Shown one piece after another: positions 49,755 through 54,615 of a stretch of 64,000 bases of DNA. The first letter of the stretch is position 1. Every line of letters starts with the position of its first letter. Location: positions 1 to 64,000 of the forward strand of contig JAGLPP010000070.1 of assembly GCA_023137315.1 (NCBI GenBank), in the 5' to 3' direction. The notes beneath the pieces were generated by a model, which worked only from the letters and a program-made list of their open reading frames with translations, did not search any database and had not been told where the DNA came from. Position numbers and translations under genes: made by a program. The DNA is from Bacteriovoracaceae bacterium (GTDB lineage: Bacteria > Bdellovibrionota > Bacteriovoracia > Bacteriovoracales > Bacteriovoracaceae).

Positions 49755-50522
49755 TTGACAGTGAACCTTTTAAAAAACGTGGAACTGAAGAAAAAAAAGA
49801 CAAGCTATAGTGAATTTGTCACACAAGTGGAAGACGAACAAAATAGAATGTGTGATCAAATTGCAAATATCAAAAATTTCTGGGAAGTCCCCAGGCAGTT
49901 GAAACAAAAAGTTGGACAGGATCGACAGTTCAGGGATTTTTTTGGAGACACTGTAATCTCCCCAATTGAAAAAGACGAAATATCCGTACTGGAGAACATA
50001 AGGGATAAATTCAGGGGACTTGATATTTTTGCGGAAGAAATCATTTCCAAAACTTTTCATATAACCATCCATGATTTAAGTAGTGGCAAAAGAAACGTGA
50101 AGCTTGAAGAAAAGGTTAAATCAAACGAGGAAAAATGCAGGGAGATTATTGACGAGCTAAAGAATTACTTTGAAAAAAAACCAGATGAGGCAATAGTAAA
50201 ACTCAGATCAACACGCATTTATCCTGTCTCGAATATCGCCCTTTTGGTTGGTTTTAATCCTGTTACAGACAGGGATTATAAAATTATGCTTAACCTTTAT
50301 CAGCTCTTTGAAAACGTCCAGTTTTTAAGATATGCCCCAAGGTTTCATGTCACTTTGAATTATTTTCAATCCCGTTCACTTAAGCACATGGAGATAGAGG
50401 ATTTTGAAAAAGTTCTGCTGGCCACGAGGGATTTTTCAATGGAACTGACTCTTGATCTTAAAAGAATCGAATACCAGCATTTTTTGAATATGAACCACTA
50501 CGAATGTAAATACAAAATATAA
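49755..50522 (+). CDS. 2H phosphoesterase-like protein
   Basis: The protein has 255 residues, starting at TTG 49755 after GGTGGG (or GTG 49761). Two H-x-T-x motifs, FHITIHDL at about residue 98 and FHVTLNYF near residue 198, are the signature of 2H phosphodiesterases such as LigT and AKAP7-type proteins, which act on cyclic phosphates of RNA or nucleotides. The spacing of about 100 residues is plausible. The rest is not recognised. It follows argE in one operon. A role in cleaving 2',3'-cyclic or 2'-5' bonds is inference. Confidence 0.6.
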   Translation: MTVNLLKNVELKKKKTSYSEFVTQVEDEQNRMCDQIANIKNFWEVPRQLKQKVGQDRQFRDFFGDTVISPIEKDEISVLENIRDKFRGLDIFAEEIISKTFHITIHDLSSGKRNVKLEEKVKSNEEKCREIIDELKNYFEKKPDEAIVKLRSTRIYPVSNIALLVGFNPVTDRDYKIMLNLYQLFENVQFLRYAPRFHVTLNYFQSRSLKHMEIEDFEKVLLATRDFSMELTLDLKRIEYQHFLNMNHYECKYKI

Positions 50523-50685: not shown

Positions 50686-53031
50686 ATGAATAAAAAAAGA
50701 TTCATCAATTTTACCTGTATCGCTTTATTTGTTTTACTTGTTTCAAATCTATCCTTTGCAAAGAACACGTGGGACAAGGCATTCGACTCAACACAACACT
50801 CATTTCGGGATCTCGGTAATGATTATTATGTACCTTTAAAGATGAGGAGACTTTCCGGAGCAAAACTTGTTCTTTTCAATTACGAGGCGGCACAAAAACT
50901 TGGACTTTCAGTACCTGAAGATCCAAAAGAGCTTGAAAAAATAATTCTCGATCGCTTTAGTGTTTTTGTCGACAACAAAAACCCGGCCTCCGATGTGGAA
51001 ATGTTTGCAACAAGATACCAGGATAGTGGCTCCAAAAAGGCTGGAGAGGCCCTTGGTGATGGCCGTGCGGCATGGGCCGGGGAACTGTCAGTCTTAAGTG
51101 AAAGAGGCACAAAAAGAAATGTGGATGTTGTGTTAAAAGGAATTGGACAGACCCCTCTTGCGTGGACTAACCATTCAGATCCCGGACACAGTGATGGACT
51201 TCAAAGCATGAATGAAGCCGTTCACAGTTTTATAATGAGCGAAATCAATGCAAAAAACCAGCTTGATACAAGTATCGATCTTGCGGTTATAGAAATTCCC
51301 CTGACAAAGGAAGACAAGCATACAGGAAAAACATCAAAGGCGGCAATTACAGTAAGAGTTGGTGGGCAAACAAGAATTGCACATTACAGATATTTTTCAG
51401 ACAACCAGTCACAATTCGAAAGAATTTTTGAATACATAATTAAAAGAGATCTCGGACTTCCACAAAATACAAAGGTGGACAAAAAACTTGTAGATGATTA
51501 TCTCACCATGTTTGTAAAAAACATTTCGGAAGAAGCTGCCAGATATTATGACCTACACGCAGTACACGCCTCCCCCACTCCCGGCAACAGAACCACTCTC
51601 GGAAGTACAATTGATATGGGAACTTTTCGCTATCTCGACGGACACCATCAAAACTACAGATACCTTTTTGACAAGCTCAAGCTTGAAGGACAAACCAATC
51701 AACTTCGCTCCTATATCCACCAGATTTTTAAATACATGGAAAATGCCCAATATCGCCTTACCCCAGGTAAAGAAGAACGTGAAAGTTTTTTTTCCATGTA
51801 TAACAAGACTTTTGAGTCCACAGTTGAAAAAATATGGCTTTTAAGACTTGGTCTTTCAGATAACGAAATCGAAAAACTTTCTTCGATATCAAAAAAGAAT
51901 TTCACCACCCTTGTTAGAGAACTTTACGAACTTTCAGGAAGTCAGGAAAGCTCCTTTGGAAGAAGAAAATTTGTTCCAGCAGGTCTTGATGTGAGAAAGA
52001 TTCTGGGTTCCACCATGGAAGTGATATCAGGACAGGACTCCTCGAAAGATCTTGCCTGGTTGTTTAAAAATGAAAGAGGCTGGGCCACTTTGGGAAGCAA
52101 TGAAACCACTGATCTCGCAAAGCGCTATCGCAATTCTGTACAAAATATTCTTTACGAACTTCCAGGAAATAAAATCAAAAAACGCTGGATAAAAAATGCC
52201 TCTCTCATGACAAAACAAAACCGTTTTGAAAACGGCCGTGGTTTTTTTGACAGCTACGAGAAGCCTATTCTAAAAATGCTGGAGGACAACAAGTCCACTT
52301 TCGTTGATATGACATCAAAAAGCCATGAAGGGATAGAATCTCTCGTGGATATGGGACTTCCAACAAGAGAGATAAACAACGTTGGCAGAAAACCAAGAAT
52401 AGGGGTTTTTTCAGGAACATTTGATCCTCCGCATATTACGCATGTAAATCTGGTTAAGGCCATAAAGAAGGCACATAATCTTGATATCGTTTATATTGTT
52501 CCAAATCTAACATCTGATCACAAACAAAATATCACCCCCTATAAACATAGAAAGGCAATGACCAAAATCGCCTTTGGTGGAATTGACGGTGTAAAACTAT
52601 CCGATAGTGAACTCGAATTTGCATTCAAATCAGGTGACATGACCGGCGTTGTGGAAACCCTGAACGATCGCCACCAGAATTCCACACTTTTTCAGATCAT
52701 GGGCAATGACAGCTATATTCGCTACAAGAAGGCCGCTGAAAAAGATCTTATCTCCAAACTGAATAATATTTCCCTTATTGTTTCCGGTCGTGAATCCCAA
52801 ATGCCGGCCGACAAGCTTCTTGGAAACAAACCTGTTATTCCATTTAATGGTGATCTTGGTGCTGATTCTTCATCCAAAGTGAGGCAGATGCTCAAGGAAA
52901 ACAAAAAATCCCCTTCCATCAGTAACGATGTGTGGAAATATATTAACACAAATGGACTATACAATGTTGCTGGAAACGACAATACAAATTGCGCTAATAT
53001 CGTCAGAGGTTTTTTAGCTGTTGGTCAATAA
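50686..53031 (+). CDS. Exported SelO-like pseudokinase fused to a NadD-like nucleotidyltransferase
   Basis: The protein has 781 residues with a signal peptide (FINFTCIALFVLLVSNLSFA). Residues 30-450 follow the SelO (YdiU) pattern: FATRYQDSG, GEALGDGRAAWAGE, VDVVLKGIGQTPLA with the ATP-binding Lys151, and TIDMGTFRYLD with Asp310. The H-G-V-x-N-T-D-N-M segment of SelO is replaced by HAVHASPTPGNRTT, so metal binding may be altered. Residues 570-770 are a HIGH-type nucleotidyltransferase like NadD: GVFSGTFDPPHITH, then YIVPNLTSDHK, QIMGNDSY and DSSSKVRQML (S-S-x-x-x-R). SelO adenylylates proteins; NadD makes NAD precursor dinucleotides. The combination with export is unusual. Confidence 0.8.
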   Translation: MNKKRFINFTCIALFVLLVSNLSFAKNTWDKAFDSTQHSFRDLGNDYYVPLKMRRLSGAKLVLFNYEAAQKLGLSVPEDPKELEKIILDRFSVFVDNKNPASDVEMFATRYQDSGSKKAGEALGDGRAAWAGELSVLSERGTKRNVDVVLKGIGQTPLAWTNHSDPGHSDGLQSMNEAVHSFIMSEINAKNQLDTSIDLAVIEIPLTKEDKHTGKTSKAAITVRVGGQTRIAHYRYFSDNQSQFERIFEYIIKRDLGLPQNTKVDKKLVDDYLTMFVKNISEEAARYYDLHAVHASPTPGNRTTLGSTIDMGTFRYLDGHHQNYRYLFDKLKLEGQTNQLRSYIHQIFKYMENAQYRLTPGKEERESFFSMYNKTFESTVEKIWLLRLGLSDNEIEKLSSISKKNFTTLVRELYELSGSQESSFGRRKFVPAGLDVRKILGSTMEVISGQDSSKDLAWLFKNERGWATLGSNETTDLAKRYRNSVQNILYELPGNKIKKRWIKNASLMTKQNRFENGRGFFDSYEKPILKMLEDNKSTFVDMTSKSHEGIESLVDMGLPTREINNVGRKPRIGVFSGTFDPPHITHVNLVKAIKKAHNLDIVYIVPNLTSDHKQNITPYKHRKAMTKIAFGGIDGVKLSDSELEFAFKSGDMTGVVETLNDRHQNSTLFQIMGNDSYIRYKKAAEKDLISKLNNISLIVSGRESQMPADKLLGNKPVIPFNGDLGADSSSKVRQMLKENKKSPSISNDVWKYINTNGLYNVAGNDNTNCANIVRGFLAVGQ

Positions 53032-53052: not shown

Positions 53053-54615
53053 ATGAGTAAATGCTTTCTTCTTGCTCTTATAATTTCAATTCTTCCTCTG
53101 AACCGGGTCTACTGTTCATGGCAAAAAGATCTTGGTCTTTTACTTGCGAGCAACAATCAGGAGGAGATAAACATACTTATTACGAAAGTACTGAAAGAAA
53201 AGCCTAATTGGCGTGACGTAATATCCTTTATAAAAAATTCAACCTGGCAAAAACCTGACAAGACAGGCATAGTCATCGAAAAAAAAATTATGTGTTCTGA
53301 TGGTATTACCAGACCATATATTACATTCATTCCTTCAAGCTATGATCCTGCAACTCCAACTCCACTTGTTGTTTATCTCCACGGAGGTGTGAGCAGAACA
53401 GAAATCAGGGATGATCGGATTGAATATGCAGAAAGAAAGGAATACATGAGGCTTGCCAAAAAAAATGGATGGATGATGGTGTTTCCATTCGGACAAAAGG
53501 GGGCAACATGGTGGGACAGTGTTGGAATGAAAAACATACTAAACATTGTTCGCAAAACCAAAAGGGATTATAATATTGATGATGACAGAGTCTGGATGAC
53601 AGGATTTTCCGACGGAGCTTCCGCCTCATTTCTTTTTTCAATGATATATCCCACGGACTTCGCTGCATTTGTTCCACTCAGTGGACACATGGGAGTTGGA
53701 GGCTTGAGTGGAAAGCTTCCACTTTATCCGGCCAATATGTCTATGTCACCTCTCCACGCTATAAATACAGATATAGACAATCTTTATCCTGCGGCAAAGA
53801 TGAGAAAAATGATTGATATGGCACGCGATGCCGGTGCAAACATTCATTATCGCGAATACAACGGTATTGGGCATGATTTTGGATATGCAGACGAGGAGCT
53901 TCCACGGATTGAAAGTTTTCTGGACAGAAATCCTCGAAATTCACTTCCACACCATATAGAATGGAAAACGGGAAAATCCGAGTTTGGAAAAAGCTATTGG
54001 CTTAAAATCAATGGTATATCCATTGGTGAACCACCTGCCCCCTGGCACATTGATTCAAATCTTTCACTTATTGATGACAGGGTTTCATTTGGTTTTTTTC
54101 CTGATTATGAATATGAAGGAAGTGGAGTGAAAGTTGACGGTTTGAGTGATGGTGATACCGTTTCAAGAAGAATGGGTCTGAAACCGGCCGATATCATAAT
54201 TAAATGCAATGAAATGAATATTCTCACCATTGATGATCTGGACGCCTTCAAGGTCTCGGTTAAACGAGGTGAACACATCAATGTGGTTGTAAAAAGAAGT
54301 AATCAGGATGTCCTTCTTGAAGGTAAAATACCTAATTCTGAGACCTATCTTCTTTTTCCAAGGGAAACACCATCTGCTGCGGTAATTGCCGATTTTATGG
54401 CGAATACTTTTTCCCTTGAAACCTCAAGGTATGGACATGGTTCAATATTAATTCATCCTGACATGGTTCAACTCGACCAGGATGTTGTAGTAAAACTTGA
54501 TGGTAATACTGTTTTCAATGGAAGGATTGAACCTGATATAAAATTTATCCTGAAACACTATCTTGAAAACCGCGACAGAAAACTTCTTTATGTGAAAGAA
54601 ATCATGATCCAGTAA
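53053..54615 (+). CDS. Exported alpha/beta-hydrolase (esterase-type) with C-terminal PDZ domain
   Basis: The protein has 520 residues with a signal peptide (CFLLALIISILPLNRVYCS). Residues 75-300 are an alpha/beta-hydrolase of the esterase/PHB-depolymerase-like group: PLVVYLHGGVSRTE, MVFPFGQKGATWWDS, and the nucleophile elbow GFSDGASASFLFS (G-x-S-x-G). His is likely in NGIGHDFGYAD. Residues 360-440 are a PDZ domain (SDGDTVSRRMGLKPADIIIKC), as in HtrA-type proteins, which would bind peptide C-termini. It follows the SelO-NadD gene by 21 bases, so the two are probably cotranscribed and both act outside the cytoplasm. Confidence 0.8.
   Translation: MSKCFLLALIISILPLNRVYCSWQKDLGLLLASNNQEEINILITKVLKEKPNWRDVISFIKNSTWQKPDKTGIVIEKKIMCSDGITRPYITFIPSSYDPATPTPLVVYLHGGVSRTEIRDDRIEYAERKEYMRLAKKNGWMMVFPFGQKGATWWDSVGMKNILNIVRKTKRDYNIDDDRVWMTGFSDGASASFLFSMIYPTDFAAFVPLSGHMGVGGLSGKLPLYPANMSMSPLHAINTDIDNLYPAAKMRKMIDMARDAGANIHYREYNGIGHDFGYADEELPRIESFLDRNPRNSLPHHIEWKTGKSEFGKSYWLKINGISIGEPPAPWHIDSNLSLIDDRVSFGFFPDYEYEGSGVKVDGLSDGDTVSRRMGLKPADIIIKCNEMNILTIDDLDAFKVSVKRGEHINVVVKRSNQDVLLEGKIPNSETYLLFPRETPSAAVIADFMANTFSLETSRYGHGSILIHPDMVQLDQDVVVKLDGNTVFNGRIEPDIKFILKHYLENRDRKLLYVKEIMIQ

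What the first reader, a model, noticed from the sequence alone, without database searches (positions are those of the whole stretch)
50686..53031. Exported SelO AMPylator fused to a NadD-like nucleotidyltransferase
SelO pseudokinases transfer AMP to proteins and NadD transfers AMP to nicotinate mononucleotide; both normally lie inside the cell. Here they are joined in one chain with a signal peptide. The SelO catalytic N-T-D-N segment is changed, while Lys and the second Asp are kept, and the NadD-like HxxH and SSxxxR motifs look intact. An exported double AMP-transfer protein could be an effector that acts in prey or host cells.
Basis: partly seen in the sequence, partly recalled or inferred. 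Interest (0 to 1): 0.78.

Follow-up and report, generated by a model that had tools for sequence, protein, structure and literature searches.

The report
Exported SelO-like protein fused to NadD-like enzyme
A bacterium related to the predatory Bdellovibrio group makes an exported protein that joins two enzymes of AMP and NAD chemistry, normally found inside cells, into one chain; the same fusion occurs in relatives, so it is real, but what it acts on is still unknown.

Summary
Window 50686-53031 (+) encodes 781 aa: a signal peptide, a SelO-fold domain (Pfam 1.4e-12; Foldseek against the PDB finds SelO/YdiU and nothing else for this half) and a NadD-fold domain (NCBIfam 1e-22; Foldseek 3e-9). 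It is not an assembly accident. Nine Bdellovibrionota members of this exported SelO-like clade were found: three intact fusions, one with a decayed NadD half, five without NadD. All nine keep the SelO Lys, both Arg, Asn and metal Asp. All nine lack the Asp of NTDN and move the helix-C Glu, and all carry a Cys 5-19 residues from the C-terminus, usually the only Cys of the mature protein. The NadD half belongs to a monophyletic clade of mostly signal-peptide-bearing NadD-like proteins (23 rows, 100/98) fused to several unrelated domains; these generally lack the nicotinate-loop Trp of canonical NadD. The core is the SelO-like half; NadD is an add-on. Best reading: an exported adenylate/NAD-handling enzyme, perhaps pairing NAD cleavage with the reverse chemistry, since SelO is now reported to split NAD into NMN + AMP through its C-terminal Cys. 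Protein AMPylation and a prey-effector role are possible but not shown.

The parts
50686..53031 (+). Whole gene: exported SelO-like/NadD-like fusion, 781 aa
   Evidence: same fusion in L048 (G338) and L092 (G350)
50686..50760 (+). Signal peptide, residues 1-25 (n-region KKR, hydrophobic core, S-F-A cleavage-like site)
   Evidence: Read from sequence; hydrophobic N-terminus in 9 of 9 clade members. No SignalP available
50797..51957 (+). SelO-like kinase-fold domain, residues 38-424
   Evidence: Pfam PF02696 E 1.4e-12; Foldseek 6eac/9jyn E about 1e-9
51136..51138 (+). K151 (= Lys113 of P. syringae SelO), conserved 9 of 9
51214..51216 (+). E177, conserved 9 of 9, one helical turn before the place of Glu136 (here S181)
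51355..51375 (+). R224 ... R230 (= Arg176, Arg183), conserved 9 of 9
51571..51615 (+). Changed NTDN segment SPTPGNRTTLGSTID: Asp252 absent, N301 (= Asn253) and D310 (= Asp262) kept
51958..52386 (+). Helical C-terminal part of the SelO-like half up to the NNVG junction, residues 425-567
   Evidence: Conserved in NadD-less relatives; model helices
52387..52965 (+). NadD-like HxGH nucleotidyltransferase domain, residues 568-760
   Evidence: Foldseek 3dv2 E 2.6e-9, TMt 0.79
52432..52443 (+). HxxH motif H583-I-T-H586
52864..52884 (+). SSSxxR motif (SSSKVR)
52990..52992 (+). C769, only Cys of the mature protein, in C-terminal tail NCANIVRGFLAVGQ; Cys in the tail of 9 of 9 members

Best explanation
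It is an exported member of a SelO-like subfamily of Bdellovibrionota that handles adenine dinucleotides or ATP outside the cell. SHOWN by sequence: export signal, SelO fold with the phosphate- and metal-binding residues kept, a lone Cys on the C-terminal tail, and an intact HxGH adenylyltransferase core fused before that tail. INFERRED: the SelO-like half binds NAD or ATP in the flipped SelO manner and attacks the alpha-phosphate (cleaving NAD to NMN + AMP with help of the tail Cys, or transferring AMP). The NadD-like half works on the same kind of bond, joining AMP to a phosphorylated acceptor or, in reverse with pyrophosphate, releasing ATP. The two halves would thus process cofactors in the periplasm, in the medium or in a prey cell. 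The SelO-like half is the conserved function and the NadD half is an accessory that several lineages lack.
For: Both folds by profile and structure. Solved YdiU structures with NAD bound (9jyn, 9jym, 9l29) are among the best matches of the SelO half. SelO reported as NADase giving NMN + AMP, with the C-terminal Cys essential (PMC13391479). Tail Cys kept in 9 of 9 and usually the only one. K, R, R, N, D kept 9 of 9. NadD catalyses formation of the bond that this SelO activity breaks (established). Own genome has another, cytoplasmic Nudix-NadD-type protein (L056), so this copy need not be the housekeeping enzyme. NadD half decayed or missing in 6 of 9 while the SelO half is kept.
Against: Asp252 of canonical SelO missing in all nine and helix-C Glu moved, so catalysis is unproven. 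Nicotinate-loop Trp absent in the NadD half, which argues against NaMN/NMN as acceptor. No ATP or NAD is expected in the organism's own periplasm. The NADase claim for SelO is recent and was read here only through a commentary. A tail Cys also occurs in some exported NadD-like proteins without SelO (L004, L081, L084, L086), so it may have another role.
Confidence: 0.4

Rival explanations
1. Protein AMPylating effector: the SelO-like half transfers AMP from ATP to proteins of a prey or host cell, the NadD half being a second AMP transferase.
For: SelO fold, Lys, Arg pair, metal Asn and Asp kept; a review assigns the deprotonating role to Asp262, which is kept; signal peptide; predatory lineage.
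Against: Asp252 lost in 9 of 9; no secretion-system partner, immunity gene or conserved neighbour; NadD half dispensable.
Confidence: 0.2
2. Two-step small-molecule modifier: kinase-like domain phosphorylates a small molecule and the HxGH domain adenylylates that phosphate, as in NadR, RibF and HldE kinase-NTase fusions, but outside the cell.
For: The same exported NadD-like clade is also found with other kinase-like candidate domains: Fam20C-like C-terminus (L079, weak, E 0.16) and IucA/IucC-like N-terminus (L074, 2.3e-5); nicotinate Trp lost, so another acceptor is plausible.
Against: SelO lacks the kinase HRD Asp and binds ATP flipped; five of nine relatives have no NTase; no substrate pathway found; the partner calls are weak.
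Confidence: 0.2
3. Non-catalytic pseudoenzyme: an exported nucleotide-binding or sensing SelO-like domain, with a NadD half on the way to loss.
For: Asp252 and Glu136 lost; NadD decayed in L047 and absent in five.
Against: Metal and phosphate residues kept in 9 of 9 at 34-52% identity; HxxH and SSxxxR kept in three divergent fusions; a new invariant Glu (E177) arises where the old one was lost.
Confidence: 0.2

Closest known systems
SelO / YdiU (selenoprotein O, protein adenylyltransferase; PF02696)
   Same: Same fold by Foldseek; Lys113, Arg176, Arg183, Asn253, Asp262 equivalents kept; Cys on the C-terminal tail as in CSS/CGT tails
   Different: Signal peptide; Asp252 absent; helix-C Glu moved one turn; 19% identity to E. 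coli SelO; extra helical C-terminal part; NadD domain before the tail
NadD nicotinate-mononucleotide adenylyltransferase (TIGR00482)
   Same: Same fold (TMt about 0.8); HxxH and SSxxxR motifs; best profile hits are NadD
   Different: Exported; fused; below equivalog cut-offs; nicotinate-loop Trp missing; own monophyletic clade
Kinase-HxGH NTase fusions (NadR, RibF, HldE)
   Same: Kinase-type domain and HxGH NTase in one chain (from established knowledge, not tested here)
   Different: Those are cytoplasmic and have unrelated kinase folds; SelO lacks the kinase HRD Asp
Cytoplasmic SelO-like proteins of about 613 aa in Bdellovibrionota (L008, L011, L025 and others)
   Same: Distant SelO relatives in the same families
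   Different: No signal peptide; keep DGDN but lose the Lys; separate clade, 100/100

Membership tests
SelO (PF02696) | Profile match above gathering score | tested here: met
   47.6 bits against 22.8; the NCBIfam YdiU subfamily cut-off 431 is not reached (81 bits)
SelO (PF02696) | SelO fold | tested here: met
   Only SelO/YdiU structures significant for this half
SelO AMPylase | Lys113, Arg176, Arg183, Asn253, Asp262 | tested here: met
   All present, 9 of 9 members
SelO AMPylase | Glu136 and Asp252 (NTDN) | tested here: not met
   Ser and Gly/gap in all nine
SelO AMPylase | AMP transfer to protein | not testable with these tools
   Needs an assay
SelO NADase | Cys near the C-terminal end | tested here: met
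   C769; Cys in 9 of 9 tails, though 5-19 residues from the end rather than 3
SelO NADase | Hydrolysis of NAD to NMN + AMP | not testable with these tools
   Needs an assay
NadD | HxGH NTase fold with HxxH and SSxxxR | tested here: met
NadD | Score above NadD equivalog cut-off | tested here: not met
   73 bits against 112 for TIGR00482
NadD | Aromatic nicotinate-pocket Trp after GxD | tested here: not met
   Absent here; present in 10 canonical NadD-type rows including E. coli
Exported effector | Export signal | tested here: met
   Signal-peptide-type N-terminus in all nine
Exported effector | Delivery into or action on another cell | not testable with these tools
   No localisation data; no conserved partner gene found

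The most novel reading that the evidence does not exclude
An exported NAD-cycling enzyme: the SelO-like half cleaves NAD to NMN + AMP through its tail Cys and the NadD-like half acts on the same phosphoanhydride bond. This would be a natural Rosetta-stone fusion tying SelO to NAD chemistry, used by predatory bacteria on prey or environmental cofactors, within a larger unrecognised clade of exported NadD-like modules.
Probability: 0.27. Interest if true: 0.82.

Novelty: new variant of a known kind. Interest (0 to 1): 0.63.

Why it matters
SelO is a highly conserved pseudokinase whose main substrate (protein, ATP or NAD) is still being worked out; a 2012 survey found no credible SelO domain fusion (PMC3281104). 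A repeated natural fusion to a NAD-synthesis-type domain is independent evidence bearing on that question and gives a directly testable protein. It also reveals a clade of mostly exported NadD-like proteins fused to diverse domains in Bdellovibrionota, where NAD or adenylate chemistry outside the cytoplasm was not expected and may relate to predation.

Tried and rejected
Chance or mis-assembly of the fusion: rejected by intact copies in two more genomes. Phage or plasmid origin: viral-contig scan found none; plasmids and phages hold only ordinary SelO or NadD matches, none covering 80%. Operon partner: neighbours differ in every relative looked at, so no conserved partner. Defence system: no PADLOC match. 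C-terminal Cys tail as a general export tag: tested on about 400 kb of a relative plus the window and about 180 kb more of the own genome; not enriched in exported proteins (Fisher p 0.46 and 0.69), rejected. Partner domain of the L012-type proteins as ParB/sulfiredoxin: motif resemblance from memory only; no Pfam or PDB match, left unnamed. Single origin of the NadD fusion: the trees do not settle gains versus losses.

Full report
WHAT IS THERE. The gene at 50686-53031 (+) encodes 781 aa. Residues 1-25 form a signal-peptide-type segment. Residues 38-424 match SelO (Pfam 1.4e-12) and residues 574-734 match the cytidylyltransferase-like family (1.7e-12); NCBIfam's best matches are YdiU/SelO and NadD models at about 1e-22, all below their equivalog or subfamily cut-offs. 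It is the only SelO of its genome.

FOLDS. AlphaFold2 models from four-row alignments are of moderate confidence (pLDDT 63 and 66; the active-site loops are poor). Foldseek is nevertheless clear: the whole protein hits NadD structures (3dv2, E 2.6e-9, TMt 0.79) and SelO structures (6eac, 9e-9). The SelO half alone hits the nine SelO/YdiU chains at 1e-8 or better and nothing else below E 0.2; the top hit is YdiU complexed with NAD (9jyn).

RELATIVES. Nine distinct members of the exported SelO-like clade were found, all in Bdellovibrionota, with 369 genomes of the phylum searched. Intact fusions: the window; L048 = G338 (Oligoflexia bacterium Kiruna3 bin, 785 aa); L092 = G350 (792 aa, SelO 4.2e-16 and NTase 4.2e-14). 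Fusion with decayed NadD (motifs lost, 25% identity): L047 = G028, Bdellovibrionales RIFOXYD12. Without NadD: L049 = G007 (uncultured Halobacteriovorax), L093, L094, L095, L096. SelO-half identity to the window is 34-52%. A tree places the four members known at that stage as one clade (100/100), apart from canonical SelO and from a cytoplasmic group of about 613 aa. The NadD-less L049 lies inside the fused ones (97/94), consistent with loss, but gains versus losses are not settled. The genome-contig scan uses two short patterns and is not exhaustive.

ACTIVE SITE, SelO HALF. In P. syringae SelO, Lys113 and Glu136, Arg176 and Arg183 hold the gamma-phosphate, and Asn253 and Asp262 the metal (PMC8097203). 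The equivalents K151, R224, R230, N301, D310 are present in 9 of 9. Glu136 is Ser in 9 of 9, but a Glu one helical turn earlier (E177) is invariant. The Asp of NTDN is absent in 9 of 9 (motif [SN]PTxGN[RK]T). This is a conserved alteration, not random decay. Whether that Asp is essential in SelO is from memory and not settled by the papers read.

C-TERMINAL CYS. Every member has a Cys 5-19 residues from its end, in seven of nine the only Cys after the signal peptide. Canonical SelO ends in CSS (E. coli) or FCGT (Bdellovibrionota). A commentary on Jia et al. (Cell) reports that SelO hydrolyses NAD to NMN + AMP and that the C-terminal Cys is essential for this but not for AMPylation (PMC13391479). 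In the fusions the NadD domain sits between the SelO body and this tail. The tail Cys is not a general export tag. It does also occur in exported NadD-like proteins without SelO (L004, L081, L084, L086), so its role is open.

NadD HALF. HxxH and SSxxxR are intact in the three good fusions. The Trp that follows GxD in canonical NadD (10 of 10 canonical rows, E. coli included by reading the alignment) is missing at that place in the window protein and in the other signal-peptide-bearing rows; L092 has a Trp shifted by about three residues and L005 (export not established) by about four in the other direction. The acceptor may therefore not be NaMN. A tree of 33 NadD-type domains separates 23 exported-group rows from 10 canonical ones with 100/98 support and in all bootstrap trees. 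This group occurs alone (L004, L084, L086, L081), with an unnamed N-terminal domain (L006, L007, L009, L012, L017, L072, L073, L076, L078), with an added kinase-like C-terminus (L079, L080), with an IucA/IucC-like domain (L074), with an alpha/beta hydrolase (L087), with a weak SLOG match (L005), and with SelO. For some rows (L005, L074, L075, L076, L078) the 5' end is cut or the crude signal-peptide score was not met.

CONTEXT. The own genome has a separate cytoplasmic Nudix-NadD-type protein and CoaD, so the exported copy need not be the housekeeping NadD. Neighbouring genes are not conserved among relatives. The 2012 SelO survey judged all fusions then known to be likely annotation artefacts (PMC3281104); no paper on SelO-NadD or exported NadD was found.

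MECHANISM. Shown: export signal, both folds, conserved nucleotide/metal residues, tail Cys, optional NadD. Inferred: adenylate or NAD chemistry outside the cytoplasm. The reading that unites the parts is NAD cleavage by the SelO-like half with the NadD half acting on the same bond, but the lost Asp252 and the lost nicotinate Trp weaken it. AMPylating effector, two-step small-molecule modification and a binding pseudoenzyme remain rivals. Confidence in the leading reading is 0.4.

VERDICT. Observation confirmed and extended; interpretation partly supported. New variant of a known kind; interest 0.63.

Noticed in passing
L006, L007, L009, L012, L017, L069, L072, L073, L076, L078 (full-length ORFs): Proteins, mostly with a signal peptide, that have a conserved N-terminal domain (motif APGHRxLR ... 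VDLWNAHHRLxAY) of no Pfam or PDB match, followed by the exported-type NadD-like domain.
   Followed up: partly
L079:808-2856, L080:253-2790, L087:649-3582, L074:1-2091, L005:629-1957: Exported-group NadD-like domains in other multidomain proteins: with kinase-like C-termini, with an alpha/beta hydrolase, with an IucA/IucC-like domain, with a SLOG-like domain.
   Followed up: partly
L008, L010, L011, L025-L046: A large Bdellovibrionota family of about 613-aa cytoplasmic SelO relatives that keep DGDN but have lost the catalytic Lys (SCGTGAT); in L008, L011 and L025 a peptidase-S51-like gene lies just downstream.
   Followed up: partly
window 49755-50522: Gene just upstream has two HxT-type motifs (FHITIH, FHVTLN) suggesting a 2H phosphoesterase; no Pfam support and not seen next to the fusion elsewhere.
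   Followed up: no
window 53053-54615: Exported PHB-depolymerase-type esterase with a C-terminal PDZ-like stretch, 21 bases downstream of the fusion gene; neighbour not conserved in relatives.
   Followed up: no
L056:1534-2538 (own genome contig C211): Nudix-nucleotidyltransferase fusion that is probably the cytoplasmic NaMN/NMN adenylyltransferase of this genome.
   Followed up: no
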